64,000 nt of DNA from Asterochloris sp. CNOR1 (lineage: Eukaryota; Chlorophyta; Trebouxiophyceae; Trebouxiales; Trebouxiaceae): assembly GCA_963969365.1 (NCBI GenBank), contig OZ017748.1, positions 2,973,001-3,037,000 of the forward strand, read 5' to 3'. The notes below the pieces were generated by a model. It saw nothing but the letters and a program-made list of their open reading frames with translations, made no database searches and was not told the origin of the DNA. This document shows, in pieces, positions 8,093 to 58,500 of this stretch; within the stretch, counting starts at the first letter, position 1; each line of letters opens with the position of its first letter. The position numbers and the translations under genes are program-made.

Positions 8093-11000
8093 TCACCAGT
8101 CCTGGATGCGTGCAAGCAGTGCATGACTTTCTGTGAGATCCTTCTGAACTTTCTTGCGTCGGTAGAAGATGGGACAGTCGCGGGATGTGCACAGAACATC
8201 CTGATGCAGGCTACCCTGGCACCGTTGGCACTGGGTCCAAAGGGCACTGAAGGAGAGCTCAAGGTCATTCACTGCGCTGAGTGTCTTTTGGTACACAGCG
8301 CCTTCCTGCAGCCAGAAACCCTATGCGTTGCAGGGGGGCGCATCCCATAGCGCGGGACATGCCCCTGCCAGCGTGTCCAGCAATACAAGGCTTTGATGTA
8401 AAGAGACACCTGGTTCGGTGGATGTGCAGCAGAAACTAGATGAGCAGCTTGCTGCCACCCTCCGCAAAGCTGCCCAAGTCGTCTTGGGGCAGCCTTCCAT
8501 GATGTCTGACATGTGCTACTGCCATGCTGACATTAGCTGTATGACCAAGCAGTGATGAACTGCAAGCTACAGCACGCAGGCCTTGAATGCAGGATCTGGC
8601 CCCAGCCAGCACTGCCAGCTGTCTAACCCGTCTGGCTCTGTCACAGACAGGCAAGCCACGGCTGTACCCCTCACCATTGCTTTACAGTTTCCACAGAGCG
8701 AGGTCTCCCCGCTTGGCAGGGGGGCCTTGCAGCTCATGCAGCCCAGCTTGACTTTTGCAAACTTCATGATGCCGCCAGATCCAGAGCTGGGGGTGGCCAC
8801 CAAGATACTCCTAGTGTGGTCCCCTGCAGTTGGTCAGCATGACAGGCTTGAGATTCCCAGTGTGCCGACCGCAGGGCAACTAGCACATGATAATATGCCC
8901 CAGCTCATGACCCATCACTGGCATGCTATGCAAGCAGAAGACCGTGTCTCTCGGGTGTGACAAGCATGCTCAAGGCCTGGGAGGTCCCAGCACCACAGGA
9001 CTTTGAGATGCCCACCTGTGAGCAGGGATTTGGGGTGCTGCATGATAGGCTCAAAGATGCGCATCAGGGGTTTGGACAGGTGGTTCTCCAGGTAGTGCTG
9101 GCAGTCAATGGGCAGGTTGTTCTCCAGGGCGTAGATGGGGTCCTCTGCCTTCTCATAGGCCCTGGCGCCCTTTGCAGCCTGCAACACATTCATGCTCAAT
9201 AGCAGGCATTGCACAGCTGACTGAAGATGGCTGCCCTCTCATACATATGCACGCCCCTTGCAGCCTGCGGCATGCCCACAGCGCACTAGCAGATGGTGCC
9301 ATCCGTCCCTTCCAGCAGCAAACACTGTCACGTGAGCATTGCAATGCCTCTGCAATGCTGCTGATCTGCCAGAATGCAGCTTTGCAAGAACTTGTGCTGA
9401 CATTGCAGCACAAGGCTGACATTGCATCTTTCTGGCCGCTGAGCACACGGCGCCAGAGAGGGGCAAAGCATGCTGCCCGCCACGTGGTGGATCCTTCTTG
9501 ACACACCCTAACTGCAGGCCTGCTGAATGTTAGAATGTCCAGGCAGTCAGGGTATTGCCTGTTTGTATCCCACCTTGATCATGACATAGGGTATCCTGTC
9601 CCCAACATTGGGCGCCGTCGCAGGATCCCTGGCCATCATCTTTTTGGCCAGCTCCACATGCGGCCCTGTCACCTTATACTTGTCCACCTCCTGGGTCAGC
9701 CCCTGCACACCATGGGCACACAGCGCTTGCTGAAGGGGACAGCATGATACAGCTCATGCTGCAGCCTGATATACACAGCAGCTTGAGGCATGCAGCTATC
9801 AGCCAGTTCCTGGGTTATATCCTGCAGGCAGGGACACCATGAGGAATCAGCGATGGTCCACAATCCCTGCAGGAGGCACAATTGCGAGGTTCGGCATTGG
9901 CTGAGCAGGGGAGCATGCACTGCTGCTATAGCAGCCTGCAGCAGCAGCAATCAGCCACCGCCTCGAGTCAGCCCTGCTGAGAGAAAGGGATTGCAGTCTT
10001 TTCAACAGAGGCAGCATAGCACAGCGCCTGCCATCCCCTGTCAAGAGGCACCGCAGGGGGCTCCAATCCTCTTGGTCACAAGCAGCAACACATTCCAAGC
10101 AGTCCAAAGGAGCCTGGCCTGGGCTGAGAAGGCAGTAAGCAACCTCCCAGGACATGTGCATAACAGCACAGCTGATGCAGTACTATCACCCACAATCACA
10201 GCATACCAACCAGCCAGATGCATGCTTGGTAAGCGCAGCAGCAGCAGTGAACCACATTATAATCTAGCGTTCTGGGGCGCCGTGACGGAAGTCAGCAGAT
10301 GGGGTCCCAGCCCTTCAGCTGCATCAGCTACATGCTGCCCACCTTGGTGACCACCAGCAGTGACAGGTCCAGGCGGTTCATCAGCAGGTCGCTGATGGTT
10401 GACTTGACATAATCCTTAGCCCCCTCCACGTCCCGCTCCATCAGAATCTTCTCCAGGCTGGTGGTTACCACATTCTTAACCTGAACATTGCACACATGCA
10501 GCGTCAGAACTGCCACACAAGTGGGCTGGCTGCAAGGTCACCTGCATGCCATGTGGGTGTGTCCGGTGGATTGCTTCAGCATTGGTGTGCCTTTACCTTG
10601 GGCCCAGACAAGGTGGCGTCTCTGAACCAAATCAAGCAGTTGGCCAGCAAGCCTATTGCAAGCTCAGCCATCAAATGGTAGGCCCCTTACAAAGCTGAGG
10701 CTTGCGCAGCCAGGCTAAGGACTGGCCTGTTGGTCTATGTGCTTCGTTGCTCACAAGGTACAGCACGGCATCACTGCAGCAGCGCCACCCAAGCTGGTGC
10801 CGACTGGCAGCAGGGGCCGGCCATGGCCAGCCACTGCAAAGACATGAGACCATATGCCATCGCACCAACAGGCAGTTGTCTCGGCGGACTGTCTCAATGC
10901 CTTTGCTGTCCATCTTGTCCCAATTGTCAGGATTGGTCCACAGCAGGCCGGCATAGCGCTTCTTGTTGATGAGAAGGTAAGGGTAGTACACCTGCAGGGC

Positions 11001-14000
11001 ACCCGCTCAGGCATTTGAGGCCATGTGTGGCAACTGGGCAAATACCTGCAGGCCTTCTTGGGCTATGGTCAGCTGCAGGCAGAACAATAGCAGCCTTGTG
11101 AGGTGGATTTCCGGCAGTGGGTCTGCTTGCAGCAGAGCATTCCACTGATGGAGAGCTGTTGCCATGATACCTGCAAGGCGCCAGCTCAGGCATCTGATGC
11201 AGTGCTTGATGGACGGCGCTGCAGTGCGCAAGAAGTAGTGCTCTGCTTGGTTCCCTGCTGCTTTGTCGAGGTCTGTGTCTGACTGCAGCTGTGCTTTATA
11301 CAGGAGCAGTGCCCAGCAAGCTGTGTTGCAATCAGCATCGGTTTTCCTTGCAGGCCGGAAGGTGCTTTCTGGCAAGCTGCTGGGCCGCCAGATTCTAATG
11401 TAGCCTGCTAAATGTTGATGACTGGCCTGACGCTGGGGTGCTGCGCTTGCAAACAGTCTTCAGTGGCAGACTGAAGCCCAGCTGAGGTCCCACACGACCA
11501 GGCCGCCCTGGCATGAAGCAAGCAGCCTGACCTTCTCAAACTCGAGCTTGATGGGCTTGATGAAGGTCTTGGAGACCTCCTCAGCTGCCTGCCTGCCCAG
11601 CTCCATAGCGCGTGCCACATTTGGCACTTTGAAGTTCACCATGACACTGTCTGTGTCTCCATAGACGACATCACAGTCTGCCTCATATCCGCTCTCCTTG
11701 TTGAACATGCGAGTCACCATTGCCCTGCAGGGCAGAGACGTGCTTGTGATGCTCATGCAGCAGACTGGATCTAGCTGGTTGTGAGCTGACTGCAAGGCCA
11801 GCCTGGAGGACAGGAAGGTGCAGGCAACGTGTAGCGCAGTGGAGCCAATTGATAACCACAGTGCATGGCACTTGGCTGGCAACACAGGTTGTTCACATGC
11901 TGCAGAGGCTGCAAGGACTGCTATGCTGGACCAGGGAATCTCAGGTGGACTGCACCGGTGCAGCCCAGGTCGCTCTGCAGGTCAGGGGAGCAGTACAGAG
12001 ATGGAGAGCCGGCCGGTGAGCTCAATGCTCTGCCTAGCCTGCAGGACAGGCCATTGCAGGCTGCAGCGGTGCAGGCTTGCCCAAGAGCCAGCTGGTGAAA
12101 ACAATGTCGCGCCAAGCTGCAGCAGGCATGCACTTCACTGCCCAGCCCTTCAGATGATGCACTGCCTCTGCTGCCATCTAGGCTGCTGAGACCCTGCACG
12201 TCTCACTTGGTGTGCTCAATCATCTGCCGGCCGTAGGAGGTGGTGCTTGATGAGATCTCCAGGCAGGGCATCTTCCCCACTGTTGCCCCAGTGAAGCCAT
12301 ACACACTGTTGGCGCTAACCTGCAGGCAGTGTGTTGGCAAAAGCAAAAGTGGGACAGCATATCCCTGTGCACTCATCAGCCTGGAGCAAATTCTGAAGCG
12401 GCCTCCAGCACACTAGGGCCAGCAGGTGAGACTCCCACGCAAGCACTCAATTGGAGCCTTCATGCAGCAGGGCAGCCCAAAGCAGGGGCCAACTCCCACA
12501 GACCCTGCCTGCAGCCCATGCTGAGCAGGAGAGGAGTGACCCTCAGAACATGTGCTGCACGTTCAGCTCTGCTGCCCAAATAGGGCTCTTTGGTGGTTGC
12601 AGCAGGCACTCCCATGCTCACTGCTCTGCAATTTGGCCTGCAGCAGGAGCCACCATTGACATGCAGCCCAGGCGCTTCATGCCTCAAAGAGGCGGACCTT
12701 GAGGGCAAGCTGCCGCCCATTCATGACAGCTGCCACAAAGGGGTCTGTGGCAGCTGCCAGGTCCTTCTTGGCCCTTTTCCTGGCCCCCAGCAGCTCCTCC
12801 AGGATCTCTGGCAAGATCCCCTTGGCCAGGCTCGCCTTGACAAACATGTCGCCGCTGGGCGTGGTGTTGACCTGATCCTCTGGGACTTCATGCTTCCTGC
12901 ATGGGACACGCTCATGTGAGTTCACATTGTGCAGGCGCTGCAGGCGTGTTATCATGCTCACAACGGGCAGAGCTGTGCTGACTAGCCTCCATTGCATGAG
13001 TCAGGCTGATGTGGTGTAACATGCTGCAGGCGCAGAGACCTTGCTACGATACGAAGGCCTTCTGCTGGCAGCCTGAAAGCCATGTTTGGCAGTTATGAAC
13101 ATCATTAGTTCAAACAACAGTTTGGCGCAGCCAAGGATAGTCAAATGCTGCCTGACAAAGGCTGACAGCGCTCCATCAGCACCGGGGAATTTTTGCAGTG
13201 CAGCAAGCTGATGGATGCAGGGAACACTGGGCATGCTGGGCCAGATGTGGAGTCCTGTTCAGCATAGCAACTGCTGCAGCCTTGTTCCTGCCTCCAGGAT
13301 TGCCCTTCAGGCATCCCAACCTGTGCCGGGGCAGCAGCGTGGAGTAGCACAGGTTGTGCGCCATCATGATGGAAGGGTACAGGGAGGCAAAATCCAGCGT
13401 GGCCACAGGGTCACGGTAGTAGCCCTGCTTTGCCTCCAGCACTGTAGCTCCCTCATAGCCGATGCCGTCTGTACCTCCACCCTGGCAGGCAGAATCATCA
13501 ACTGCTTGGGTAGGGAAGGGGGTGCTGATGGGGGGCATACATCTTGCTCTGCGCTGCATGTATCTTACCCAGGCAGCATTCAGCAGCTGTACAGGCCCCT
13601 TGCATAGCCAACGTTAATTTTCTTCTCTAGCCACTGTGCTGATCAGCACATTGCGCCCCCGGCAATGCGTAAGCCTCAAGGCGCCAGGTAGCCTGCAACT
13701 ATTGTGTGCTGCTGCACAGCATACACTGGCATCTCTTGGAGCGCGCAAGCACAACTGTAGCACCTGGCCATGGCAAACATGGTGAAGCACAGAGTTACTG
13801 GGCTTCACCATGCACATGGCTGCCTCACCTTCATGAAGGGCACCACTAGCTTTTTGGTGCGGGCTTTGCGCAGCACCTGGCTGAACACCTTAATGGACTG
13901 CCCTTTAGTCAGCAGAAAGCTGAGGGGCACTCCTGTCACACGCGCCATCTCAATGTAGTTGTACATATACATCAATTTGTCCAGGAGCCGCTGCGGCAGG

Positions 14001-17000
14001 TAGGCATCCTGCACAGCAGGGCAGGTCAAGCGGAAGTTATGTACGACACAGCTGTTGTTCGCCTAGCATCAGGTGCATCAGCAGCTGGGGCAAGCAGGCA
14101 TCCTGCACAGCATGGCAGGCCTCAGGTGCAATGTTGCCACTTGCAAATGAGAAAACACAGGGAGCACAGGTGCTATCTTGAGGCCATCGCGAAAGCAAGG
14201 CATCCTGAATAGCACCACAGGCAGGCACAGAGATGATGGTTCCGCAGTCAATGCTGAATGTGCAAGAGCTGTCCAGGCAGACTGTCTCACACATTTCAGA
14301 CTGTGCTTCAAACCCTCGGCACAAGTCAGGTGCAGGTTGGAGGTAGATCGCTGATGCTGCTCTGCCCAGCATAGGGCCATTGTGTCCCCCGCACCTTGAG
14401 GCAGCAGCCTGCCTCTTCTTCTGACAATGCTGTTCCACAATTCCACAGCTTGATTCAGGCACAAGGTGACCAATACGCTGCCAGCCCAGCCTGGTGGGAC
14501 CATCCGCACCTTGAGGCAATAGACTGCCAGGCGGCGTCTTGTCTCCGCTGTCCCATTCTGCAGGTCTTTGATGATGGAGTGGTGCACATCCTCCTTCTGC
14601 TCTCCCAGGAAGTGGGCTGAAACTGCGTTGAGGGAGTAGCTGCTAAGCTTGTGGTCACGCTGGATGGCTTGCAGCAGGTCAAACTGAACCCGCCCATCAA
14701 TGGTGATCTCCTTGTACTCGTGGGTGCCATAGGCTTTGCTGCTGAACTGGGCGTCCCTCATGCGCAGCTTGCTGCAGGACAGGCAGACTGCTAAGCCTCA
14801 GTGGCAGGCACTCTTCATGCACAGCTTGCTGCAGGGCAGGGAAGGGCAGGTTTGCAACTGCTTTAGGGTGCCATAGGCTTTGCTGCTGCTCTGATCATCT
14901 CTGATGCACAGCCTGCTGCAGGTCAGGGCAGGCAGGCTATGTAAATCCACTGTGCAGTGTGCGAGGTATGCTCTCCTACTGCTGGACCTTGCTACTTTGC
15001 TGACTAGCTGCAAAGCAAGACCGGCAGCCACTCAAGACTTGCCACTGTGCAGCGCCTCAGTGGCCTTGTGGCAGTTTGGGTGCCTCACTATCAGCTATAA
15101 AGGTGCAAACAGGTCTCTTAGGATGAAGCACACTTTGACCAGCTTCTACGACATGAGCCCGCCTTGACTTTATGTTGCTGATAGTCAGCCTGTCCAGCCT
15201 CAAAGTCGCTCTGGCCTGAGAACACTCTGCTGTGAAATTGCTCCTGCCCAGCCCATGTGGCTCTGTCTTGTTTCAGAGCAGGGTGCCTTGGAGGAAGGGG
15301 GTGCTGATGGCAGTAGGCTCTGCATGCAGCCTGCATGCCGTTGCACAGTGCTCACTTTCTTGTCAGGCGACCCCAGAAGGGGAACTCCTTAATGTCCAGC
15401 GTCTCTGCCCGCTCAATAAGGTAGGGCAAGTCAAAATTGACAATATTGTAGCCAATGATGATGTCTGGGTCTGACTCAATCACCAGGTCGCGCCAGCGCT
15501 GCAGGTTAAGCAGGGAGGTTGCAGTCAATGTTAGTGTCTGATGCAGCTGAAGGGACACGTTGCACAGAGCTGCTATGAGCAGAGCTTCTTGTGTGACTTT
15601 GCAGTAGCCCACCTGACTTTTAAAAAGCATAAGTGGGGCATCTCGGGGCATGCAGGGCTTCTCTGCAATGTGCAGCTGCTGCTGGACTTAGTGTGGGAGT
15701 AGCCGACCTTGAGCAAGTCACGCTCATCCTGGAAGGCCATGACCTCAGACCCAACAATGCCAGCGCAGGTGTTGAGCGTCATGACATTCTTCACCACAGG
15801 CTTGCTCTCGCCCTGCACAGTGATCATGCTGGCGATCTGGATGACCGGATCCCTCTGGGCGCTAGGAAAGCCCTGCACAAGTGGGCAACATTCAAAGTCT
15901 GAGTTGCAGAGACCAGCGTGCTGAGCTCTGCACATAGTACTCTGGGTGCAGCAGCACACCTTGCTGCCTGCGCACTCAATGTCCATGCTCAAAACCCTTA
16001 GGGGCGCCATCTTGCTCCATACACCTGCATATCATCACTGTAACACATGCAGGTCAGCCTTGCTGCTGGCGTCAGGCAGCTACTGGCGCACAAGCTGGTA
16101 TGCCCATAGGATTCCGCAATCAGCAGTTGTTGACACAACTCAAGGCTTTGCCCTTCGTGGCCGGATTTCAGAGCTGGCAGGCCTCCTGAGTGCACCAGGT
16201 TCACACCTTCAGGCTTGTAGCTTTTCAGCTTGGAGTAGTGCACATGGGCTTCCAGCTGGCAGTGGCTCTGCTTGGCATGGTGTCCAGGCGGCTGGTAGAC
16301 ATAGGAGCCTGGCGGCAGCTCCACCCAGCCCCCGCCGGCAATGTCACAGTCAATCATGAAGCGTAGTGCATACAACACATTACTCTCATAGCTGGCAAAG
16401 CTGCGTGATTGGCCCAGGCTGTCAATGTAGATGCCCACCTCCATCAAACCTGCAGGCGCAGGAGGGTGCCCCAGGAGCTATCAGCATAGGCACAACTGGA
16501 CAGCTCAGCTGCTGCGCTTCTTCAAGACGCCCAACATGATGCAGGTGAGCAGCCCTCATGCTGGATCAGTAGCCCAAAACCACGCAGTTCATTGATGGAG
16601 ACTGCTTGACATGCTGCTGGCCAATGCCCACCTTGCACGGCTACTGCTTTGCCTCAAGGTGCCAAGAGCAGTTCAGTCCAACAGACCTAGTGCAAACCTA
16701 GAGAAAGCCCACCTCGTGTTCTGGACACCAGGTTGGGCGTGGCCAGCACAATCCTCAAGAACTGCCTGGACTTTGCAGGCTGGTAGTGCATGATGCTCTG
16801 CTTCTGCTCCATGAAGACCCCCAAACACAGCTTGCCTGGGGTGGGACCCTTCTCCTTAGACCTCAGCACGCTCTGCATGGGGCAATTGATGGTGTGCCAG
16901 CTACCTCAGCATGGCCTACTGCGGAGGTGCTGTGATTGCGATGCCAGCAGCCGCCACATGTGTTCCCTGTTGGCGTACCCTGCTTTGAGGGCAAGATATG

Positions 17001-18228
17001 AGGTGAGCATGCTACCGCTCAACAGATAGCATGCAAATTGAGCAGGCAGCTACTCACATTCAGAGCGTTGCTCAGGGAGACGCAGTCATCTGGTCCAAAC
17101 CCAGTGGGGGCCTCCACATAGAAGTATGGTTCAAAGCCATGCACAAAGACACAAAGGCTGTTGCCTGCGAACAGCACAGGCGAGTCTTGTGCGCGGAATT
17201 TCTGCCTCATGCCCATGCACAGCTTTGGCGCCAGCAGAAGCGGGCAGGCAGGTCACCAAGCTTAGCAGGCACCACTTCAGGGGCTGGACAAAGCACACAA
17301 AGCAACGGTGTGCATTGAGAAGAGCGAATCCAGCAACGGCAGCATAAGCCGGCACCTGACTCTGTGACGCCAAACATGCGGATGATAGGTGCCTGCTTCT
17401 GCTCAGTCCTGTGCACCTGCTTGTTGGGGTTGCCCAAGGTGTAGTCAATCTCCAGCTGCTGGAACACTGCATGTAGGGACCAAGGGCTTCAGAGGCACGC
17501 CCTGTGGCTGGCAAATGCACGCTGCCCCAGCTGTGCAGCGCAGCTGGTGGCACAGCAACACATGTTCACCTAGGCTGTCAGTCGCAGGTATGACTGCTGG
17601 AGCATCTGGGCGCCTCCAGTTCCTCCCAGCCTCGCCCAGATCCAGCTCCACATCCTCCTCTGCCATCACCTGGCCACAGATCAACATTTGATCATGGTAT
17701 GAGCTTGGACAAGGCATGCCCTCCTATCATCAGCCCAAGAGCCGAGGCAGGCCGCGCCTGGGAGCTTGAGCTCATATCATCCCAGCATGCCTGTTGTAGT
17801 CCCTGGACAGCGCAGCGCAGGCTCTATGTGCACACATTGGGCCACATCCAGTCCAGCTGCAAAGACCTTCAGCCCAGCTGCAGACATGAAGCCCACAGCT
17901 GAGCCCAATAGAGAGGACGGCTCATGCTGCACTATCCAGAGCTGTCAGGCACAGGGCCGATTGTTCGATGCAATAGAAGTCATGTTGCTGCTCGAGCCCG
18001 TCAGGCATGCACCTGATCTATATCCTCATCTGCGAGCAGCTCCAGCTGTGTTTCAACATCCATCACTGGGCCTTCCTCATCTGCAGCAGCCTGCTGTGGA
18101 TGTTGTTGAGAGCTGTGCTGACTTGGCTGCAATTTCTTGGCCAGGGGTTGCCAGGCTCCCTTGCCAGCAGGGCGCTTGGCATTGGGACCGCCTGGAGGTT
18201 TGTTCTCCCTGCCTCCCTTCGGTGCCAT
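8093..18228 (-). CDS. POLD1: DNA polymerase delta catalytic subunit, complete
   Basis: B-family replicative polymerase for lagging-strand synthesis and repair, in the nucleus. First exon 18228-18013 encodes a Lys/Gln-rich tail typical of the N-terminus. Exonuclease domain: ExoI SMDIECAG (about 15990), Exo[16 protein letters not shown] (about 15450), ExoIII YCLKDAYLP, split by an intron between 14516 and 14008. Polymerase domain: motif [12 protein letters not shown] (about 13400), motif B region NSVYGFTGA (about 12310), motif [12 protein letters not shown] (about 11670), then KKRYAGLLW (about 10960). C-terminal cysteine modules: CysA CMSC...CGNC (about 8740) and CysB CQRC...CTSRDC (about 8210), the [4Fe-4S] site that binds the POLD2 subunit. 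The stop TGA at 8095-8093 follows LLARIQDW. All catalytic aspartates of motifs A and C and the proofreading DIE are present, so the enzyme should be active. Its promoter is divergent from the PLAC8 gene. Several introns carry decayed exon copies. Confidence 0.97.
9702..9821 (-). repeat. Decayed upstream copy of a POLD1 exon start
   Basis: Reading the minus strand, the real exon begins at 9702 after CAG and encodes [12 protein letters not shown] second CAG followed by a similar start encoding DITQELADS lies 119 bp upstream, beginning at 9821. The copy then runs into intron sequence. The polypyrimidine-poor tract and CAG acceptor are repeated with it. Confidence 0.6.
14002..14207 (-). repeat. 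Three serial copies of a POLD1 acceptor and exon start
   Basis: The functional exon starts at 14008 and encodes [15 protein letters not shown], which carries the ExoIII aspartate. Decayed copies start at 14102 ([13 protein letters not shown]) and 14204 (DALLSRWPQ), each after CAG. Spacing is 94 and 102 bp. The real exon and the nearer copy share 17 identical bases across the splice junction (14002-14018 and 14096-14112). Confidence 0.75.
14385..14530 (-). repeat. Duplicated POLD1 exon end plus splice donor
   Basis: The real exon ends in CTCAAG/GTGCGG near 14509, after coding [10 protein letters not shown] decayed copy of the exon end and donor, also CTCAAG/GTGCGG, sits about 115 bp further into the intron near 14394. 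Here the donor side rather than the acceptor side was duplicated, in the same intron that carries the acceptor copies at 14002-14207. Confidence 0.6.
14722..14918 (-). repeat. Three serial copies of another POLD1 acceptor and exon start
   Basis: The functional exon starts at 14771 and encodes [21 protein letters not shown]. Copies begin at 14828 (short, KLCMKSA) and 14915 ([20 protein letters not shown]), each after CTGCAG. The farther copy shares 22 identical bases with the exon (14722-14743 against 14866-14887). Both copies are out of use because stops or lost homology follow. Confidence 0.8.
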
Positions 18229-31338: not shown

Positions 31339-31555
31339 TCGTCCCCACCATAATCACGACATGCACCTGGTCTACATTCATTGAGTGTCATTTTGGGGAC
31401 CAGCATGCCACGGCGTTTGAAGTTGACCTGCAAAACCCTCTCGTAGGGGTGTGAGCTCGATCCTGCTGAGCGATTCTAGCATGCACCAGCGACATGACAA
31501 GATGGAGCAGCGAGTTTGATTGTTGAGTTGTTTGATCTGTCGGCCCAGCTTTCAG
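31339..31555. promoter_or_regulatory. Short gap between SF3B3 and the dynein gene
   Basis: 217 bp between the SF3B3 stop and the predicted dynein ATG, same strand. It must contain the SF3B3 3' UTR end and the dynein promoter. No TGTAA and no known element was seen. Confidence 0.4.
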
Positions 31556-43500: not shown

Positions 43501-46500
43501 GAGCTTTGCATCGCTCTACAGGACATCGTGGAATCTTTCAAGAAGACGATGCCCCTGATCACAGACCTGCGCAACCCTGCTATGCGCGAGCGCCACTGGG
43601 CCCAGCTGATGGAGCACATTGGCGCCAAGTTTGACCCAGCTGGGGAGGCCTTCACGCTGGAGTCAGTCATCGACCTGCACCTTGACCAGCATGTGGACTT
43701 CATTGCTGAGCTGTCTGGCAATGCCAGTAAGGAGCTAGGCATTGAAACTGCCATTCAGGTGACTGGCTGCATCAACAGATATGCTGCACTATGCACATTC
43801 AAAGCTGATGTTCCTGCTTGCCATTTGCTACCCTGCCATGCAACCACACCTCTGCATCAATTCTACACTGTTGCTCCAGCTCGTCATGCAAGTCAACATC
43901 TGAGCCATGCCTGCAGAACATTGCCACCACCTGGTCAGCTCTTGGACTTGACATGGCTACTTACAAGCAGACATTCAAGCTACGCAGCACTGAGGAGGTG
44001 AGTAACACTACGGTCACCAACTGTGGTGCCCTTGAAAACACATATGAGTCGATCTGGCGGCAAATCTGTTCACTGCTGGCCTCTGTCGGCGCAGGTGTTT
44101 GCAGCGCTGGAGGACAATACAGTGACGCTGTCCACCATGAAGGCCTCCCGCTTCTTTGCCACCTTTGAGAAGGACATCACTCAGTGGGAGCAGACGCTGT
44201 CCATGGTCTCAGAGACCATTGAGATGATTCTGCAGGTCTGACAACCAAGCTGCGGGCCCTGAGTCCAAGAGCTTTGCATGCTGTCGCTGCAATGCCCAGT
44301 CTCCACTGCCATCTCGTCATTAACTGGCAGCGAGACGGCACATCTCAGATTGCCTACGTTGCTGTCATGCTTGTCTTGGATTGTGGACAGCCAGGGCTGC
44401 CTGTGAAGGTGGGGGAAGGGGAAACTCCCACAGCACTGGCGATGCAGTAGGTGCACCTCAGCAATGAGTGTGCTCCTCCTGCTGTGCAGGTGCAGCGCAA
44501 CTGGATGTACCTGGAGAACATCTTCATTGGGTCTGAGGACATTCGCAAGCAGCTGCCCCAGGAGTCTGTGCTGTTTGAGGGGGTGCACGCCACCTTCCAG
44601 CAGAAGATGAAGGAGTTGCAGACAGTCTGCAATGTGGTCCAGGTGAACACTGTGGGAGGCCAGCTTGATGGTAGCCCCACAAACACTGCCAAAACATGAC
44701 AGCAAGCAACTTGTAAAGACAGTGACTCTCCTCAGCCTTCTTCTGCTTTCTGGGCCTTCTCGTGAGCAAGGGTGCAGGCCTGAACAGCACCAAGGCCCTG
44801 GAACATGTTGATTGCATGCTGGCTTGCACATCACAAGTCACGCTCGTCACCTGCATTTGCCCCTGCACAGGCCTGCATAGCTCCCAACATGCCAGATGCT
44901 TTGCCTTTTGGTATGCAGGCCTGAACAGCACCAGGCACGCTATATCATCACTCTGCTTCTGCGCAGGCCTGCGTATCTCCCTGTCCATGCTGAACATCTG
45001 GTGCTGCCCATGTGCAGGCCTGCACAGCGCCAGGCATGCTGGACACATTCAATGACATGGATGCCAAGCTGGAGCGCATCCAGAAGAGCCTGGAAAACTA
45101 TCTGGAGACCAAGCGCCAGCAATTCCCGCGCTTCTACTTCCTGTCCAGCGACGATTTACTTGAGATCCTAGGGCAGGCCAAGGACCCCATGAATGTGCAG
45201 CCCCACCTCAAGAAGTGCTTTGAAGGTGGGCGTTCCCAGTGTGTACGCCTCTTGCAGAGGCAATGGGTAGGTCTCCTCATGGCTGTTGGCCTTGCTGATG
45301 CAGTGAGTTGCTGAACAGATCAGCCTGCTGTTGGGTTTCCAACTCTCTGCAGCGACCATCACCCTCGATGTCGTGCACCAACAGTTCTGCTGTTTGAGCA
45401 TGCGAGAAGAACGCTCTGCTCAGCCTGCTGTTCTCCCAGGCACCACAAGCGTCATGCTCAGCCCTTTGGCATGCAGGCATCAAGAAGCTGGAGATGCATC
45501 CCCCTGGCTCAGAGGGGCGTCATGCTTACGAGAGCACAGGTGTCTTCTCCCCAGATGGGGAGTACCTGCCCTTCGTCAGCCCGGTTGTCACTGAGGGCAG
45601 GCCTGAGGAATGGCTCAATAGGGTGGAAGAAGCCATGTTTGCCTCCACCAAGAAGCATTTGTACAAGGTGAGTGACTGCTAGGCATGCATGCAGAGCTGT
45701 GCAGAGGCATGCATGCAGAGCTGTGCAGCTCAGCTTCCTGCTGAGCAATAACCTGCTGGGTAGACCTCAGGCCGGTCTGCTTTACGCTGCTGCATCCTGG
45801 CTGTGTAGCAGTGTCAGCTAGGGCAGTCCCTGTACAGGTGCTGGAGGACAGCAAGGCTGTCAAGAAGGAGAAGTGGGTCAAGGACAACCAGGGACAGCTG
45901 ATCATCACAGCTGGGCAGATGATCTGGACCCTGGAGTGTGAGAAGGCGCTGTCAGACCCTGATGGCGCCAAGACAGCCCTGCGCCACCTCAAAAAGAAGT
46001 GGATCAGCTACCTCAACAAGCTGACTGCTGTCACGCGCAGCAAGCTCAACAAGATAGAACGCAACAAGGTGCGGTAAGGGTGCCATGCTAAGAGACCCGC
46101 GTAAATCTGCAGTGTGTGTTGTGCGTCAGGCCTACATGGATGCCGCATGGCAATCAATACAAAAGCCTGAGAGTGCAGCAATGTAATCCCTGTCGGTGAT
46201 GGCCATAGTCACCATTGAAGAGCGTGCTGCTGCACAGCAGGCTGCAGCTCATGGTGCTCCTTCGCCGCACTGGCCCTTGGCAGATGGTGTTGCTGGGCAC
46301 CATGGAGGCGCTTGCTGCAGAGGAGCATACTCACAGCTCCCGCTGGTGAACTTAGACGTTTCTCCCCTGCAGGTGGTGTCGCTGATCACCATCGAGGTGC
46401 ATGCACGAGACATGATTGAGAAGCTGGGGAAGGCCAACTGCAGTAGCCCCACTGACTTTGAGTGGGTCAGCCAGCTGCGCTTCTACTGGGACAAGGAGCT

Positions 46501-49500
46501 CAACGATTGCATTGTCAAGCAGGTGGGCCTTGATCAAAACCAAAGTTGCACAAGTGTATTGTTGAGCAGCAAGGCCATGACTCACACAAGAGCTGCTGTG
46601 TGTGCAATTGCTCACAGAGGCAACAAGGCTCATACTTGACTGAGGATCTGCATGCATCAAACTGCTGTGCTGTGCTGTGCAGCAGGCTGCAAGGATTTGG
46701 CCTGGCCACGCAAACACTAGTGTACTGTTGCGTTTGCCTCAGGCAGCTCAGCCTCAGGCTAATCACCCCTGCTCAAGTTCTGAAAGTGGCAATGCCGGCT
46801 GCAACAGCTGGCACAGAGTCTGATCGTGCTGGCACAGAGTCTGATTGTGGCACTTCCTGCCGTGACAGGTGCTCTCTGTGTTCACGTATGGTTACGAGTA
46901 TCAGGGCAACAATGGCCGGCTGGTCATCACGCCCCTGACAGACAGATGCTACATGACGCTGGGTGCGGCGATGTTTACCCGCAGAGGAGGCAACCCCCTG
47001 GGCCCTGCTGGAACTGGCAAGACAGAAACTGTAAAGGTCAGTCAGGGCTTCAGTGGCTTGACATCAGCCTTCGGCTGCTGGTGTACCTGAAGCGTCATGC
47101 CAGCGGTCCCAGCTCAAATTGCAGACGCTGGTCTGCCTGAGGTGTCTGCCTCCTGCGGACCCTTTGGCGCCATGGATTCCTCATGTGACAATCCTTTGTT
47201 GCGAGCAGGGGCGTCGGCGCCTCAGGTGCCCACAGCAGCCCGCCTGCACACCCTCATTGCACATTTCATTGGTGTTCCCTCACATGTGACATCCTTGTAT
47301 CCAACATGCAGCCGCTTGTCTGGCTGGGCTGCCCTGCTGTCCCCAACAAACCCCCTGCCAGTTCAGTGGCTGCCCGCATCTGAGGCTTTGCGCTGCAGGA
47401 CTTTGGCAAAGCGCTGGCTCGCTATGTCATCGTGTTCAACTGCAGCGATGGCGTCGACTTCAAGATGACTGGCAAGATGTTTGCTGGCCTCGCGCAAACA
47501 GGCGCCTGGGCCTGCCTGGATGAGTTCAATCGTATTGAGGTGGAGGTGCTGTCTGTGGTGGCCACCCAGATCGCCACAGTCATGCAGGTGGGGCAAGCCG
47601 TGCACACGAGGATTTTGTGAAGAGACACATTGCTGTGAGCCTTGTAGCCTGTCACAGGGCCTGCAGTTAACCCCATCTTGGCTGCAAATGGCAGCATAAG
47701 CTCCCTAGTTGCGTCATGCTGCACAACATCTCTCCTTCTTGTCCTTGTGAGTTGAGCATGCTAACAGGAAGCGATGCTGACAGATCTAAGAGCCTTTGCT
47801 GCTGGTATGGCTGCCACTTCTAGTCCAAGACCTGGCAGCCACCTATGCATGCTTCTGCACTGCAGGCCATCAAGGAGCGCAAGTCCCGCTTTGTGTTCCT
47901 AGGGCAAGAGATCCGCCTGATCCCCTCCTGCGGCATCTTTGTGACCATGAACCCAGGCTACGCTGGGCGCTCAGAGCTGCCTGACAATCTGAAGGCCATT
48001 GTGCGACCAGTCTCAATGATGGTGCCAGACTTCACCCTTATTGCTGAGATCATGATGTTCTCCGAGGGCTTCTCTGGTGCCAAGGTAGGGTTGCGTGCCC
48101 TTGTGCTGCACTGCCTGGATGGTCCTCAATGGCAGTGTGCTGGTCTGATGGGGTAACCTCTGCCGGCAGCCAGCCGCTACTCAGGGCTGCCTTTGACACC
48201 TCACCCTCTTTTCATCTTCCCGGCCTTGCTGCTACCTTTGAAGACTGGCGGCTACCCCTGACATTCCCCATTCAGATGCTGGGTAGCACCTTGGAACCCC
48301 TCCTGCTTCAGGTACTGGCCAAGAAGATGATTGCCATCATGGAGCTGTCCCAGCAGCAGCTCAGCAAGCAGGACCACTATGACTACAGTCTGCGATCATT
48401 TGTCATCCCCATCGCTAGAGCTGCAGGTGGGCAGCACGGCCAGCACTGTAGTCACTCAACCACTGGCCGGCTCCTGTGAGCCACTGCATACATCTGGTTC
48501 TCCAGGGGGATAATTAGCTCCTGTGAGCTGCAGGCTAGTGTTACCAGATGCCCTGCGCTGCTTGTCACCAGATGCCTTGCCCACAGCAGCACAGCCTCTG
48601 AGAAAAAGGTGCTCCCTGTGGCAGGTGCTCTGCTGCGCGCAGACCCAGATTTGAGCAGCAGTCTCTCTGTCTGCCGCTTCACAGCAGGCCCATAAAACCA
48701 GCTGACTGGCTGCTTGCAGGTGCCGTCAAGTGCTTGTACCCTGAGCAACTGGAGCAGTGCATGAGCCCAGAAGCAGGGGCTCATGCACTGCATCACCACC
48801 GATCGCTGCTGCCTGCTGCAGGTGCCCTGTGAAGCACACAGGCCCGTGATGCTCAATACGCACTCCATCTCTCTATAGGCGTGGCAGCAAGATCCTGTCT
48901 TGTGCTGATGCTTTCAAGCCTGCATGCCTCACCCCTGGTGCTTGCTGTAGGTGCCCTGAAGCGCTTGGACCCCGATTCCAGCGAGGAGCTGATCATGTAC
49001 CGCACCATGCTGGACCTGATCAAGCCCAAGCTGGTGTTCCTGGACCTCCCGCTGTTCATGGCCCTGCTGAGCGACCTGTTCCCAGGAGTGGACATGCCGC
49101 CCGCGCCTGAGGGGTCCCTCAGGAAGGCCATTGAGGCTGAGCTGCAGGAGACCAACCTGCAGGCAAGCAGCAGTTAGGACGCTGCTGCGCTGAATGGTGC
49201 AGCTTGCTGGGCTATCAAGCGATGGCCTGACAATCACAATGTGCGGTGTGTCCCTGCAGTGTTGAATGCTTCAGGCTGCAAGCCGCCCCTTCCTGGCAGG
49301 CAAGCAATTGCCACACAAACAGAGGGCAGCGTCTGCTGTGCAGGTTGTGCCAGACTTTGTCACGAAAATAATCCAGATCTTCGACTGCAAGGTTGCCCGA
49401 CACGGCAACATGATTGTGGGCAAGACAGGCGCAGGCAAAAGCGTTGCCTGGCAGACGCTCCAGAGGGCTCTTGCCAGGCTCAAAAAGGAGGAGCCAGAAA

Positions 49501-52500: not shown

Positions 52501-55500
52501 CGTGTGTGGGTCAATGCAGACTGCTCTGATGCCTGCAGGTGCTGACCGGGAGACTCTGTGCCTGCAGGTATGACAGGCAGCGGTGCGAGCCCAAGCAGAT
52601 CAAGGACATGCAGTTACTGGCGTCCATGGCGCCGCCTGGTGGTGGACGCAACGCCTTTAGTCAGAGGCTGCTGGTGCGCATTCTGCGTACCTCAGCAGTG
52701 ACCCTACCAGCTCATCTGCTGCAGCTTGCAGCACTTAGGCATCTTGTAGTCGATGGCAGTTGCCTGGACTGTGCTGCTTCTTCAGCTCAACATCTCATGC
52801 TTCTGACCGTGTGAGGCTGCGCTAGCGCTCTGACTTCCGCATATGTGTCTTGGGGCAAGTCTTAGCTGCGCTGATGTGCAGTGACTCTTCAGTATCATGC
52901 CTGGTGGCAATTGCAGGGTGCTGTATTGCTTTCATGCTGACAGCTGTCCCTTGCGTGTGTGATGCAGGCCTGCTTCTCCATCATCAATGTCACAGCACCA
53001 AATGATGCCCAGCTCAAACGCATCTTTGGCACGCTGCTCAACTTCAAGCTCACTGACTTTGACGATGCCATTAAGCCCCTGGGTGACCAGATCACCCAGG
53101 GCACCATCGAGATCTACAGGGCAGTGTCGCGGGAGCTGTTGCCCACTCCTTCCAAGAGCCACTACCTGTTCAACACCAGGGATCTGGCCAAAATCATCCA
53201 GGGCGTCATGCAGGCCAGCAAGACATTCTATGACAACCAGGTACATGTTGGAGTTGAGAAGCATCAGTCCTGCTCGGGAGTGCTGGGGGCCTGGGGTGGA
53301 GGAGCGGGGTGGAGGAGCGCGGTGCAGCCGGGATTGGGTGTGCCAAGCTGAAGCTGGGCGTGTCCAATACCTCAGACTGGCTGCATGGTTGAGGCGGCTG
53401 GCAGAGAAGTGAGATGCAAGCAGGCTGAAGGCGCCGGTGCAGAAGCAGGCCCTTATTGAAAGCGGTGCTGATGGTGCCTTGCAAGTGGAGCCAGGGGTCT
53501 GGCTGACTGCAGCTAGTCTGACCGCGCAGTTGCTCCTGCAGGAGTCCATGCTGCAGTTGTGGTGTCACGAGACCTTCAGAATCATTGGTGACCGCATGTG
53601 GGATGCAGCAGACAAAATCTGGCTGCACACCCAGCTGGACAACAGCCTCAAGAATATCTTTGGGACGTCCTGGGATGACACGTTTGGTGCTGGCCAGGAC
53701 TGCCCGCCGTTTGTGTCCTTCATGCGGCCAGTGGAGAACCCTCCTTATGAGCCTGTCACTGACATGAATGCCCTGAAGGTGAGGCAGAAGCTCTGCGGCA
53801 GTCTTGGCTGGAAGCAAACAGCATGGCTTTGCCTGCTGCTTGCACCTGCGAGACTCCTGCCTGTCTGCAGCTCTAAACTTCATGATCCTGCAGGATGTCC
53901 TGACCACCAGGCTTGAGGATTATGCAGCAGAGCCAGGCAAAACGCCCATGGACCTGGTGCTCTTCAGGTGCGCGGCATGCAAGAGGTAGCATGTACTGCA
54001 AGGCGTGAAGCATGCAAATGTGCTTACAGCTGCCTGAAGTACCCCCAACAGTGCAGTCGCAGCAGCAGATGCTCTTTGGGGCTGGCCTCCAAACCCTCAT
54101 GCGTGCCTGCATGCAGGGACGCACTGCTGCATGTCTGCCGCATCCACAGGGTGCTCATGCAGCCCCGCGGCAATGCTTTGCTGGTAGGTGTGGGTGGGAG
54201 CGGACGTAAGAGCCTCAGCCGGCTGGCTGCCTATGTGGCAGAGCAGAGGTGCTTCACCATTGAGATTACCAAGGGGTACAGGCTCGTCGAGTTCAGGGAG
54301 GATCTCAAGAACCTCTACCGGCAGGTTAGCAAGCACACTCTCCATTTGCTTGGTCAGATGCACGTGATCTGCCTAGAATCCTGCGTGCAAGCTCTGGCAA
54401 GTGGGAGGCAGACTCAACGCTGGTCACATGCTGCTACACAGTAGTTGCTGACAAGTTTGCCCTGTGGGCTGCAGGCTGGGTGCCAGGACAAGCCCACTGC
54501 CTTCTTGTTTGATGAGACTCAGATTGTTCAGGAGACCTTCCTTGAGGACGTCAACAACATTCTCACCTCAGGTGTGCCAGGGTAAACCACTTGCAACTGG
54601 CTACATCTTAGTCTGATCCTGCCACAAGTTTTCTCCCAGTAGACTGGAGCCAGCCAAGTGTTTAGTAACGATGGTTGTGCTTGTTCATCTGTTATGCTTT
54701 GTTTCAAATTCTGATCATGCACCCAGTGGCAGCGCAGGACGTGTCTAGTCAGACCCCTGGACATTTGAATTGTTGGCTTCCCTGGGGAGTTCACCATCAA
54801 TGCGAGCTCAGTGGAGCCTGCCTGGGAGCCTGTGTACACAACCTGCAGTCGAGGTCCACAGCCGGTGTCCCTGGCATCAGCTGACGTGGGTGTCAAACAA
54901 GCCTGACTGTCAGATACATTTCTCTGCAGGCCAGGTTTCCTGTCTATCATACAAGGATGAGCTGAATGGGGTATTTTAGACATGGCTGCCAGCAGATGCC
55001 TCACTTTGCACTGCTGGTTGCAGGCCAGCTCTCCAACCTGCGAAATGAGGACAAGCTGAGCGGGGTGACAATATGGTCTTTACTGTCAGCAAAGGCCTCA
55101 CCTTGTACTGCTGTTGCAGGCGAGGTCCCCAACCTGTTCCCCAAGGATGAGCTGACCGGGGTGCTTGATGAAGTTCGCCCAGCTGCCAAGAAGGCCGGCG
55201 CCGGCGAGACAGCTGACCAGCTGTATGCCTTCTTCCTGGAGCGTGTTCGCACCAACCTGCATGTCATTCTGTGCCTGAGCCCCATTGGCTCCACCTTCAG
55301 AGAGCGCTGCAGGATGTTCCCAGGTGGGCTTTGCACCCAGCAGCTGCATATGCTGGCATATGCATGCAAAGGGCATATAGTCTTTCTGTGTGACAGAGTG
55401 AATAGCTGACATGCAGTAGGGAAGAAAGTTGAGCAAGCTGAAGGGTACCACATCTCATGCAGGCCTGGTCAACTGCACCACCATTGACTGGTTCACAGAG

Positions 55501-58500
55501 TGGCCGGCTGACGCGCTGCACGAGGTGGCTGCCAAGCAGCTGGCCGAGGAGAATCTGGGTTCTGAGGAGACCAAGGCCAACATGTGCAAGGTCTTTGTGA
55601 CAGCGCACCAGTCGGTGTCTGACATGAGCAAACAGATGCTGCAGCAGCTCAAGAGGCATAACTATGTGACGCCCACCAACTACCTGGAGACGGTCCGGGG
55701 TTACAGGTTAGCGTGCAGCTGCATGGCAGGGGTTTGTGTAGGCAGCGAATGTGCATCCTTACACCAGCACATCATGAGTCTGCCAAACACAAGAAGATTA
55801 CTGAGCGTGCCGTCTGTGTGGCGCCTCAAGTGCATTAGACGTATGGTGAATGGAAACATATGACTCACTCTTGCAGCACTTGATGTATGAAGGCCACAGG
55901 GGTGCTGGTATGTGTGCTTTGTTGTATTCCTGTCCTGATGTGACTGCAGGGGCCTGCTGCAGCAGAAGCGCCGCCAGGTCGGCGACAAGGCTGGCAAGCT
56001 GAAGGGCGGCCTGCAGAAGCTGGCAGAGACAGGGGTCCAGGTTGGGGAGATGCAGATCGTCTGCCAGGAGAAGAAGGTTGTGGTGGCCCAGGCCAAGATC
56101 AGCTGTGAGGAGCTGTTGGTGGCCATCGTGCAGGACAAGCGGGCAGCTGATGAACAGGAGAAGCAGGTATCCTCTGGCAGCAGCCAGACAGGCTGCATGC
56201 ACTTGCCACTTGCAGGTCTGGGCACAGCATGTTGTCGGCCCTTGAGGTCAGGGGTGTTACCTGGCTCCCTTGGCAGGCAGCAGCAACCCAGCTCCCGCGG
56301 CTGCCAGCATTGCTGCAGAAAGGCAGGCAGCAGAGCATGTAAAGGAGGTCCCTGAGTCTCCTTGCTGCTCAGTCAGCAGCAGCCTGCAGTACTGGCTTGA
56401 AGAGTGCTGGGGGGCTTGCTGCTGGTATGAGGTCTGCCGCAGCAAGCAGCCCTGTAGTCCCATGTGCACTGCTTCAGTCTGGCACGTCCATGCTGCGCAG
56501 GTCAATGCTGAGGCCCAAAAGATTGGCAAGGAGGCTGATGAGGCCAACGCCATCGCAGCTGAGTGCCAAGCTGGGCTGGACAAGGCATTGCCAGCACTGC
56601 AGGCTGCAGAAGACGCCCTCAATGTGCTTACAAAGAAGGACATGTCAGAGCTGAAGGTGCAGTTCCCTGAGAGTTTCCGCCTTGGCATCTGCCACTTGAC
56701 AGCATGTCTGCTGGGCTTTGAAAGGGTTGGCAGCTTGCAGCCCAAGCAGACAGAATTGTCTGCCAGCAGCAGCATCACCTTGCATCTTAGAGTCGTTTAG
56801 AACATAGCATTCTATCTGTGTTGCGGTGCCCTGCAGCTTGGCAGTCGCAGCAGGTCTTGCATGCTTGGCTTCAGCACAGCGCAACCCTCACTGGCAGCAA
56901 GATCCCAGCAGTTGCAGCAATTGCTGGGACGCTGTGTCAAGCACTCCACCCTGGTGAAGCTCAAGCTGTAAGGCTTGGAGACTGCAAGATTGCAGCAGAG
57001 GTCCCAGCAGGTTCAGCACCATCTATGACTGCCGCAGATCGGTGCCAGACCCCCTGTGCTGGTGGAGCTCACGCTGCCTTGCATGGTCACATCCACAATG
57101 CAGCAGCTTCTGGCAGGTGCCCCATTGCATGTGACGGCTGCAGGCCTATGCCAAGCCCCCTGCCCTGGTGGAGCTCACACTGTCTGGCGTGATGACTGTA
57201 CTGCGTCGCACGCCCACCTGGGACGAGGCCAAGAAGGCATTGGGGGACGCCAGCTTCATGGAGAAGCTGCTGCAGTTTGACAAGGACAGGCTGGATGACC
57301 CCCTGCTCAAGAAGCTGCAGAAGTACACCACCAACCCCGAGTTCACGCCTGAGGTGGGCAGAGCCTACCTGCGTCGCAGGTTGTGATCAGTGTCGTCATG
57401 CTGCAAACATGGCACGGATTACTAGCCCAGAGCGCACGCCTGCGCTGTGCTGAGTCTGCCTGCACAAGCCCCTGTGCTTCATACTGATCTGGGCGAGCAC
57501 CTGAGCTGCGCGGAGTCGGCGTGCATCACCCTGGTGCTGATCATTGCCATGCAAGCCACGGCTGGCGAGGGTGTGCTAGCATGGTGCCAAATCCAGTGCA
57601 CAAGCCTTGGCTGCAGTCAATACACAGCAGCAGCCTGCTGAAATGAGATTCATGCGCGGCCCAGCATGCATGGCATGCTGCTCCTGCTTTGCGCCCACAT
57701 CTCAGATCTTCAGGTTGGCAACATGTCCAGGGCCTCACGCTAGGTGCATTACAGAGATAGTTGCGTTGCCACCTACCTCTTGATCCTGCAGTCAGTTGGC
57801 AAGGTGTCTGGGGCAGCACGCGGGCTGTGCCTGTGGGTGCGTGCCATGGAGACATATGGCACTGTGGCCAGGGACGTGGCCCCCAAGCGTGCCAAGCTGA
57901 AGGCGGCGCAAGACAACTTGGCCAAGAAGCAGACAGCCCTGGCAGCTGCGCAGCAGCAGCTGGCAGAGGTGCTGGCCAAGGTCCAGACGCTCAAGGTGGG
58001 GGACTAAGCCCCTGAGGTACTATTGGGGTTGGCCTAGGAGTCGGATCACTGCTGCTCCCCCTGGCAATGCTGCCCCTGGCCTGGAACTGACTCCACAGCT
58101 GCACAGCAGCTGGCAGAGGCCCTAGCCCTGGAGCTCAATGAGAGTCACCAGGGACACTGCTTCCATTGGCAGCATGGATCGCAGCCTGTGCTGAACAGGG
58201 CAGCCACTGCTTTGCGGTGCGACTGTGCGGCCAGTGATGAGCTTGAGCAGGCAATGCCCTGAGGGCTCAGCGAGCAGCTGTGGACGCCTTGGCATGTCTT
58301 TTTCTGTGAGCAGACAGGTGGAGGCCTGCAGCAATTGCTGCCATCTCAATGTCAGCTTTGCTCCAACTGGCTGCCCTAGGCCCACAGCCAGTACCCGCGT
58401 GCAGGAAAACTATGAGGAGAGCACGCTGCGCAAGAAAGCCTTAGAGGATGAGCTGGAGGACCTGGAGGGCAAGCTGCTGCGTGCTGAGAAACTGCTCTCA

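What the first reader, a model, noticed from the sequence alone, without database searches (positions are those of the whole stretch)
9702..57200. Recurrent serial duplication of intron/exon boundaries across three unrelated genes
Ten or more introns in POLD1, SF3B3 and the dynein contain two to five decayed tandem copies of the next exon's acceptor and first 20-60 coding bases. They are always on the upstream side with the intact copy last. Spacing is near-constant within a locus (89/89, 106/107, 94/96, 48/48/51 bp) but differs between loci. Stretches of 12-22 identical bases make chance unlikely. This suggests a genome-wide process that lengthens introns by repeated boundary duplication and leaves strings of alternative acceptors. 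Possible causes are replication slippage at CTGCAG-rich tracts, or selection for the last acceptor so that earlier copies decay freely. I do not know of a description of this as a systematic feature of an algal genome, but cannot search.
Basis: partly seen in the sequence, partly recalled or inferred. Interest (0 to 1): 0.8.

Follow-up and report, generated by a model that had tools for sequence, protein, structure and literature searches.

The report
Tandem duplications leave exon-edge relics
In this lichen alga's genome, short stretches of DNA have often been copied head-to-tail, and where a copy overlapped the edge of an exon its broken twin was left behind in the neighbouring intron at either end; this looks like ordinary mutation plus selection, not a machine that copies exon edges.

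Summary
The copies are real and genome-wide, but not confined to acceptors, and need no boundary-specific process. The genome is Asterochloris glomerata or nearly so. In 109 introns of POLD1, SF3B3 and a DNAH2-type dynein, the next exon's first 60 bp recurs in the preceding intron in 13 (0.53 expected from mispaired exons), and the preceding exon's last 60 bp recurs in the following intron in 6 (0.60 expected). In 28 stretches on 10 contigs the sides are equal: 15 of 266 acceptors (0.49 expected), 16 of 257 donors (0.30); wrong-side introns give 0 of 221 and 1 of 230. Duplications inside introns are as common as random placement predicts; same-exon ones are depleted. Where codons differ, the exon copy matches outgroups in 235 comparisons, the intron copy in 5. 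Best explanation: pervasive short tandem duplication, nearly neutral in introns and across splice sites, after which only the intron-side copy decays. The process is known; the exon-edge relics are its by-product.

The parts
14866..14921 (-). POLD1: decayed copy of acceptor + first 50 bp of the exon starting at 14771 (144 bp away); a second, shorter copy at 14815-14834 (57 bp away). All coordinates of copies in this list are worked out from the distances and are good to a few bases
   Evidence: scores 76 and 36; 83% identity; exon model
14052..14108 (-). POLD1: decayed copy of acceptor + first 51 bp of the exon starting at 14008 (94 bp away)
   Evidence: score 46
9231..9268 (-). POLD1: weaker copy of acceptor + first 34 bp of the exon starting at 9178 (86 bp away); not among the 13
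   Evidence: score 36 with six intron bases included; 28 on exon part alone
27350..27614 (+). SF3B3: three decayed copies of the start of the exon at 27676 (107, 173 and 330 bp upstream)
   Evidence: scores 31, 66, 60
29724..29787 (+). SF3B3: decayed copy of acceptor + first 60 bp of the exon at 29835 (107 bp upstream)
   Evidence: score 45
34049..34098 (+). Dynein: decayed copy of the start of the exon at 34115 (65 bp upstream)
   Evidence: score 48
40016..40054 (+). Dynein: decayed copy of the start of the exon at 40124 (106 bp upstream)
   Evidence: score 35
41935..41953 (+). Dynein: short copy of the start of the exon at 42013 (85 bp upstream); weakest of the 13
   Evidence: score 30
44772..44994 (+). 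Dynein: five-copy array of acceptor + exon start for the exon at 45018 (51, 99, 147, 196, 240 bp upstream; unit about 48 bp)
   Evidence: scores 29-44; CAGGCCTG kept in 4 of 5 copies, TGCAG in 2 of 5
46190..46315 (+). Dynein: two copies of acceptor + exon start for the exon at 46373 (89 and 177 bp upstream)
   Evidence: scores 44 and 28
48623..48833 (+). Dynein: three copies for the exon at 48951 (129, 231, 326 bp upstream)
   Evidence: scores 25, 38, 33
54844..55067 (+). Dynein: three copies for the exon at 55120 (96, 190, 271 bp upstream)
   Evidence: scores 48, 44, 50; TRF 96-bp row
56932..57090 (+). Dynein: two copies for the exon at 57144 (106 and 214 bp upstream)
   Evidence: scores 58 and 50
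57710..57739 (+). Dynein: copy of the start of the exon at 57792 (82 bp upstream)
   Evidence: score 31
23766..23800 (+). SF3B3: DONOR-side copy; end of the exon ending at 23682 plus its GC donor, 114 bp downstream in the intron
   Evidence: score 46
12538..12600 (-). POLD1: DONOR-side copy of the end of the exon ending at 12698 (157 bp downstream in gene direction)
   Evidence: score 38
12017..12046 (-). POLD1: DONOR-side copy of the end of the exon ending at 12207 (192 bp downstream in gene direction)
   Evidence: score 30
38137..38183 (+). Dynein: DONOR-side copy of the end of the exon ending at 38109 (76 bp downstream)
   Evidence: score 35
42516..42563 (+). Dynein: DONOR-side copy of the end of the exon ending at 42222 (341 bp downstream)
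   Evidence: score 39
58096..58130 (+). Dynein: DONOR-side copy of the end of the exon ending at 57995 (153 bp downstream)
   Evidence: score 40
33284..33567 (.). Intron-internal duplication with no exon part (two copies 166 bp apart, 80.5% identical)
45681..45728 (.). Intron-internal tandem duplication, 24 bp x 2, identical
30426..30463 (.). Intron-internal tandem duplication, 18 bp x 2.1, identical

Best explanation
Short head-to-tail tandem duplications, mostly 15 to about 250 bp, arise throughout this genome without regard to exon boundaries. Inside an exon they are mostly purged. Inside an intron, or across either splice site, they are nearly neutral, because splicing at the exon-proximal site (last acceptor, or first donor) leaves the mRNA unchanged. 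The exon copy is then held by protein constraint while the intron-side copy decays, which makes it look as if the exon edge itself had been copied. Arrays then gain or lose units, giving near-constant spacing within a locus. Shown here: existence, genome-wide spread, two-sidedness, size range, location classes and which copy decays. Inferred: that the exon-proximal site is the one used in cells, near-neutrality, array turnover, and birth by patch repair of nearby nicks rather than slippage (about 0.5 of my belief on the origin; I had 0.55 before recounting the junctions).
For: Independent sample, score 34 or more: 15 of 266 acceptors and 16 of 257 donors carry copies, against 0.49 and 0.30 expected; wrong-side introns give 0 of 221 and 1 of 230 (2 and 4 at score 30 or more, where own pairs give 23 and 24). 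Repeat offsets are flat from 15 to about 130 bp, fall after that and are rare beyond 400. Classes observed v random placement at score 16 or more, without two array-rich loci: acceptor 65 v 42.4, donor 48 v 41.9, same intron 82 v 84.1, same exon 12 v 29.0. Neutral simulation predicts acceptor/intron 0.62-0.63 and donor/intron 0.57-0.68; observed 0.67 and 0.66 in the sample, 0.79 and 0.59 overall. A simulation with random breakpoints and a frozen exon copy gives acceptor-side matches that stop near the splice site if most events are old. In 19 window copies, exon residue equals outgroup in 235 comparisons, intron copy in 5, neither in 54. Some young events are complete two-copy tandems: L025 72 bp x 2 at 100%, L014 83 bp x 2.2 at 98%, window 24 bp x 2. 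In rice, tandem duplications dominate insertions up to about 125 bp, drop by 200 bp and are attributed to patch repair (PMC7971508, section 7 read).
Against: Acceptor-spanning pairs run above random placement overall at each threshold (65 v 42.4, 50 v 28.4, 26 v 14.7) and exceed donor-spanning ones at score 18 or more (50 v 28, p=0.017); the window drives this, but sample acceptors are also above random placement (39 v 27.6), as are sample donors (38 v 26.9). The class simulation was run at score 16 only and sorts events by where the unit lies, not by the matched part, so it is only roughly comparable. The shape simulation fails with ages spread evenly (39% of matches reach more than 14 bp into the intron; observed 3 of 37 acceptor and 0 of 30 donor copies) and fits only if most events are old; in line with that, only 3 of 67 copies reach 90% identity, fewer than a steady rate suggests. 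Introns with two or more copies exceed independence (10 of 239 when 33 of 239 have at least one). No related genome, population or RNA data; sample gene models are ab initio.
Confidence: 0.8

Rival explanations
1. One reading: a process targeted at intron/exon boundaries, mainly acceptors, repeatedly duplicates the acceptor and exon start.
For: Acceptor excess in the window, 26 v 10, 19 v 4 and 13 v 1 pairs at three thresholds; serial acceptor copies in 13 of 109 introns against 3 on the donor side, and in 10 against 5 of 239 in the sample; matches end near the splice site.
Against: Sample near-symmetric: 39 v 38, 31 v 24, 13 v 13 pairs and 23 of 266 v 24 of 257 introns; intron-internal duplications are as common as random placement gives; boundary-limited matches arise with random breakpoints when events are old.
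Confidence: 0.07
2. Replication slippage between short repeats such as CTGCAG or TGCAG creates the duplications.
For: CTGCAG is denser in introns (4.79/kb) than exons (2.18/kb); 5 of 12 near-complete high-identity tandems have 9-49 bp of extra match beyond one unit, as slippage or later unit gain would leave; serial excess over independence.
Against: The other 7 of 12 have 5 bp or less; the perfect 72-bp duplication has no CTGCAG at its joint; TGCAG is kept in only 2 of 5 copies of the array before 45018.
Confidence: 0.2
3. The upstream copies are functional alternative acceptors kept for regulated splicing.
For: 12 of 33 copies score at or above the 10th percentile of real acceptors, and 3 of 33 score above their own real site; in local alignments 26 of 28 covered acceptor copies keep AG.
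Against: With copies placed by exon sequence alone, AG is kept in 20 of 32 and the donor dinucleotide in 10 of 21, close to what neutral decay at the observed 73-75% identity gives; use of the copy would keep frame without a stop in only 3 of 33.
Confidence: 0.05
4. The introns themselves were born by tandem duplication of exon segments (Rogers/Hellsten model).
For: Same kind of mutation; tandem duplication can make introns (PMC4974935 and PMC2891723, passages).
Against: That model puts the exon-start copy just after the donor, at a distance equal to intron length; none of the acceptor-side copies listed for 26 window introns lies within 10 bp of that (nearest 247 bp in a 265-bp intron).
Confidence: 0.02
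5. Chance matches, low complexity or assembly error.
For: Splice motifs and CTGCAG are common, giving weak matches (mean 0.098 hits per mismatched pair at score 24).
Against: Mispaired exons, distant offsets and wrong-side introns all give near zero at the higher scores; copies differ by roughly 20%, so they are not assembly duplicates.
Confidence: 0.01

Closest known systems
Short tandem duplications attributed to patch repair of adjacent nicks in rice (PMC7971508, passages and section 7; Vaughn and Bennetzen 2014 and Schiml et al. 2016 seen only as citations)
   Same: Head-to-tail duplications of tens to about 200 bp, spread over the genome.
   Different: There seen as recent differences between varieties; here mostly old and decayed, recognised through the constrained exon copy. 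Junctions here do not settle the repair route.
Boundary-spanning tandem duplication in potato RdRp (PMC4974935, passages)
   Same: One duplication crosses the 3' end of an intron and the 5' part of the next exon; the paper also reports an 83-bp tandem duplication within the first intron.
   Different: There a single recent event that created a new intron; here many events that only lengthen existing introns, on both sides.
Intron gain by tandem exon duplication in Drosophila (PMC2891723, passages)
   Same: Tandem duplication within genes combined with splice-site choice.
   Different: That model needs a duplicated AG/GY proto-splice site within an exon and gives a new intron; not the geometry here.
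Messer and Arndt 2007, recent short insertions in human are mostly tandem duplications (title seen as a citation)
   Same: Tandem duplication as the main source of short insertions.
   Different: Paper not read; nothing on exon edges in the title.

Membership tests
Short tandem duplication (patch-repair type) | Young events are complete head-to-tail copies (match length about equal to unit) | tested here: inconclusive
   clear cases: L025 72/72, L019 35/34, window 24/24 and 20/18, L014 102/83; but only 12 of 49 listed high-identity pairs outside L009 and L020 have match/unit of 0.9 or more
Short tandem duplication (patch-repair type) | Size spectrum concentrated below about 125-200 bp | tested here: met
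   flat to about 130 bp, falling, rare beyond 400 (all loci, copies within arrays included)
Short tandem duplication (patch-repair type) | No dependence on flanking microhomology | tested here: inconclusive
   extra junction match 5 bp or less in 7 of 12, 9-49 bp in 5 of 12, two of these being arrays of more than three units
Short tandem duplication (patch-repair type) | Appears as insertion relative to an outgroup | not testable with these tools
   no related genomic DNA at hand (one search states no relatives are held)
   donor side equal in the sample; 6 of 109 in the window
   sample ratios 0.67 and 0.66 against simulated 0.62-0.63 and 0.57-0.68; with the window included the acceptor ratio is 0.79
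Intron gain by tandem exon duplication | Copy distance equals intron length | tested here: not met
   none of the listed acceptor-side copies within 10 bp of intron length; nearest 247 in a 265-bp intron
Mutually exclusive or alternative exons | Whole exon copied, open frame, both splice sites kept | tested here: not met
   copies hold about 40 bp of exon; AG 20 of 32, donor dinucleotide 10 of 21 kept

The most novel reading that the evidence does not exclude
In a gene-dense genome with introns of about 275 bp, nearly half of the tandem duplications that lengthen introns cross a splice site (46% of simulated placements with units of 40-260 bp; 113 of 195 observed pairs), and they survive about as often as intron-internal ones. 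Introns would thus grow largely by absorbing decaying copies of their own flanking exon edges, and each event hands the gene a spare splice site. That would make boundary duplication a standing, near-neutral source of intron length and of cryptic splice sites.
Probability: 0.35. Interest if true: 0.6.

Novelty: new member of a known kind. Interest (0 to 1): 0.4.

Why it matters
The constrained exon copy acts as a reference, so old tandem duplications that would otherwise be unreadable in introns can be recognised and roughly dated. That gives a way to gauge, from a single genome, how often a common class of mutation occurs and what it costs at splice sites. It also warns annotators of this and similar algae that introns hold partial exon look-alikes with plausible splice sites. 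My ten literature searches listed no title or abstract start describing such relics genome-wide, but two returned no papers, the lists held at most 15 rows, and the library lacks most subscription papers.

Tried and rejected
(self-BLAST at huge E-value) timed out and was replaced by an ungapped diagonal scan; unsupervised gene-finder training drifted to many tiny exons and was dropped; the finder was retrained on homology-based models. Its intron cost was picked from five values on the same three genes; at that value, trained on some genes and tested on the others, it gave 17 of 21, 13 of 19 and 65 of 69 introns exactly. extension rows fell on the self-diagonal and were discarded; only its flank scores were kept (intron flanks of the copies resemble each other more than mispaired flanks: acceptor z 4.4, donor z 2.7). 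One search banded alignment was too permissive and was discarded. I first suspected that matches ending at the splice site meant copying starts exactly there; (acceptor side only, distances typed in from observed ones) showed that asymmetric decay gives the same shape if events are mostly old. In one search, 26 of 28 covered acceptor copies keep AG, which looked like selection, but a local alignment reaches AG only if it matches; placing copies by exon sequence alone gave 20 of 32. Loci L009 and L020 hold dense arrays and were left out of the class counts, the simulation and one version; they were kept. POLD1 introns before the exon at 17570-17669 were left out because the outgroups disagreed on the first exons. 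One of the 109 introns probably has a wrong donor (SF3B3 23245). One search printed 11 predicted proteins from 7 sample loci; I checked 5 of the 11 with Pfam and all 5 passed a family cut-off. On recounting I corrected my earlier reading of junctions, and moved slippage from 0.15 to 0.2.


Full report
What was checked. The window lies on contig 3 of a 56.4 Mb, 21-contig genome. A rough SF3B3 model matched a protein labelled jgi/Astpho2; spliced alignment of that protein to the window gave 1209 identical residues of 1209 aligned. Astpho2 is the JGI portal name of Asterochloris sp. Cgr/DA1pho, cited in the Asterochloris glomerata genome paper (PMC6652019, passages), which gives 56 Mb, 10,025 genes and 9 introns per gene (passages). 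The genome is therefore A. glomerata or nearly so. SF3B3 was also modelled with an unnamed relative and Myrmecia, POLD1 with Trebouxia, Myrmecia and Coccomyxa, and the dynein (DNAH2 / dynein-1-beta type by hit names) with Trebouxia and Myrmecia. Together they give 109 introns.

The observation. Each intron was aligned with the first 60 bp of its own next exon and with those of all other exons. At score 30 or more the own pair hits in 13 of 109, and 0.53 are expected from mispaired exons. An exon-independent control agrees: 45 local direct repeats at offsets below 620 bp against 1, 0, 0 and 0 at far offsets.

The missing half. The mirror test, the last 60 bp of the previous exon against the intron after it, also succeeds: 6 of 109 against 0.60. 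To see whether the window is typical I fetched 240 kb in 28 stretches from ten contigs and predicted genes with a finder trained on the three homology-based genes (cross-gene tests). At score 34 or more, acceptor copies appear in 15 of 266 introns (0.49 expected) and donor copies in 16 of 257 (0.30 expected). The strongest control compares exon edges with the intron on the far side of the same exon: 0 of 221 and 1 of 230 (2 and 4 at score 30 or more, against 23 and 24 own hits). The signal is thus genome-wide and two-sided. The acceptor excess is strong in the window (26 v 10, 19 v 4, 13 v 1 pairs at three thresholds) and not significant in the sample (39 v 38, 31 v 24, 13 v 13); pooled it reaches p=0.017 at the middle threshold only. 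Since the window was picked for this very feature, I give the sample more weight.

What the duplications look like. Offsets are evenly spread from 15 to about 130 bp, then fall, and are rare beyond 400 bp. By position, at score 16 or more and without two array-rich loci, 212 pairs fall as follows against random placement: acceptor-spanning 65 v 42.4, donor-spanning 48 v 41.9, within one intron 82 v 84.1, within one exon 12 v 29.0, different exons 3 v 4.8, different introns 2 v 9.9. So exons are protected and boundaries are not avoided. Boundary pairs stay recognisable longer because one copy is constrained; a rough simulation of neutral duplication and decay with that asymmetry predicts acceptor/intron 0.62-0.63 and donor/intron 0.57-0.68. 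I observe 0.67 and 0.66 in the sample and 0.79 and 0.59 overall. Recognisable copies cover 7.1% of intron bases and 5.5% of exon bases, against 0.3% and 0.2% at control offsets.

Why it looks like copying of exon edges. Matches extend a median of about 40 bp into the exon but 5 bp (acceptor) or none (donor) into the intron, which tempted me to think copying starts at the splice site. Simulated random tandem duplications with a frozen exon copy and two decaying intron copies give much the same picture at about 25-30% decay, though the simulated exon extent (about 52 bp) is longer than observed and an even spread of ages does not fit. Gapped comparison of the intron flanks still finds more likeness than mispaired flanks (z 4.4 and 2.7), as a true tandem requires. 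Protein outgroups show which copy decays: over 230 aligned codons and three outgroups per gene, where the copies differ the exon residue equals the outgroup 235 times, the intron copy 5 times, neither 54 times. Splice dinucleotides in the copies decay much like their surroundings (AG 20 of 32, donor 10 of 21). Twelve of 33 acceptor copies still score like real acceptors, and use of the copy would keep frame without a stop in only 3 of 33. Introns with a boundary copy are longer (median 521 v 276 bp, 43 v 354 introns), partly because longer introns offer more room for a match.

How it arises. Some high-identity examples are complete head-to-tail copies: 72 bp twice at 100% in L025, 83 bp 2.2 times at 98% in L014, 24 bp twice at 100% in the window. 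Of 12 such near-complete pairs outside the two array loci, 7 have 5 bp or less of match beyond one unit and 5 have 9 to 49 bp. In rice, the share of tandem duplications among insertions starts at 70%, declines above 125 bp, falls to 5% by 200 bp, and is attributed to repair of adjacent nicks rather than slippage (PMC7971508, section 7 read). The size range here is similar. I favour that origin at about 0.5; the data here cannot decide it. Serial copies exceed independence (10 of 239 introns with two or more on the acceptor side when 33 have at least one; 5 and 31 on the donor side), which fits later gain of units within an array.

Limits. No related genomic DNA, population or RNA data were available, and no second eukaryotic genome to say whether this one is unusual. 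Sample gene models are ab initio, though the five proteins checked of eleven printed all have clear Pfam families. Very young boundary copies are scarce (3 of 67 at 90% or more); loss of perfect repeats by recombination, removal of mis-spliced alleles or an old burst could explain it, and I cannot tell which.

Verdict. It is best explained by a known mutation type acting everywhere, filtered by selection and splicing. What is new is the systematic record it leaves at both edges of exons.

Noticed in passing
window, donors after 23682, 26685, 34817, 39517, 39779, 40320, 43340, 49162, 49517, 61399: GC-AG introns are common: 11 of 109 window introns (10 convincing) and 31 of 288 predicted sample introns; about 1% is usual elsewhere (recalled, not checked).
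   Followed up: partly
L009 6288-6690 (C2:100001-110000): Array of about five 79-bp units, neighbouring copies 92-97% identical with the last more diverged, whose edge overlaps a predicted acceptor at 6298 of a metallo-beta-lactamase-fold gene on the minus strand (Pfam): a young version of the same pattern, with an ab initio gene model.
   Followed up: partly
G000:C2:3413206-3416168 (L001, L004): DNA polymerase B matches in long frames with one TAG and one TGA inside; may belong to the viral remnant region described in PMC6652019 (passages). Not printed or translated.
   Followed up: no
introns throughout: CTGCAG is about twice as dense in introns (4.79/kb) as in exons (2.18/kb); 86 of 109 window acceptors end in TGCAG.
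   Followed up: no
67 boundary copies in window and sample: Scarcity of very young boundary-spanning copies (3 of 67 at 90% identity or more) is unexplained.
   Followed up: partly
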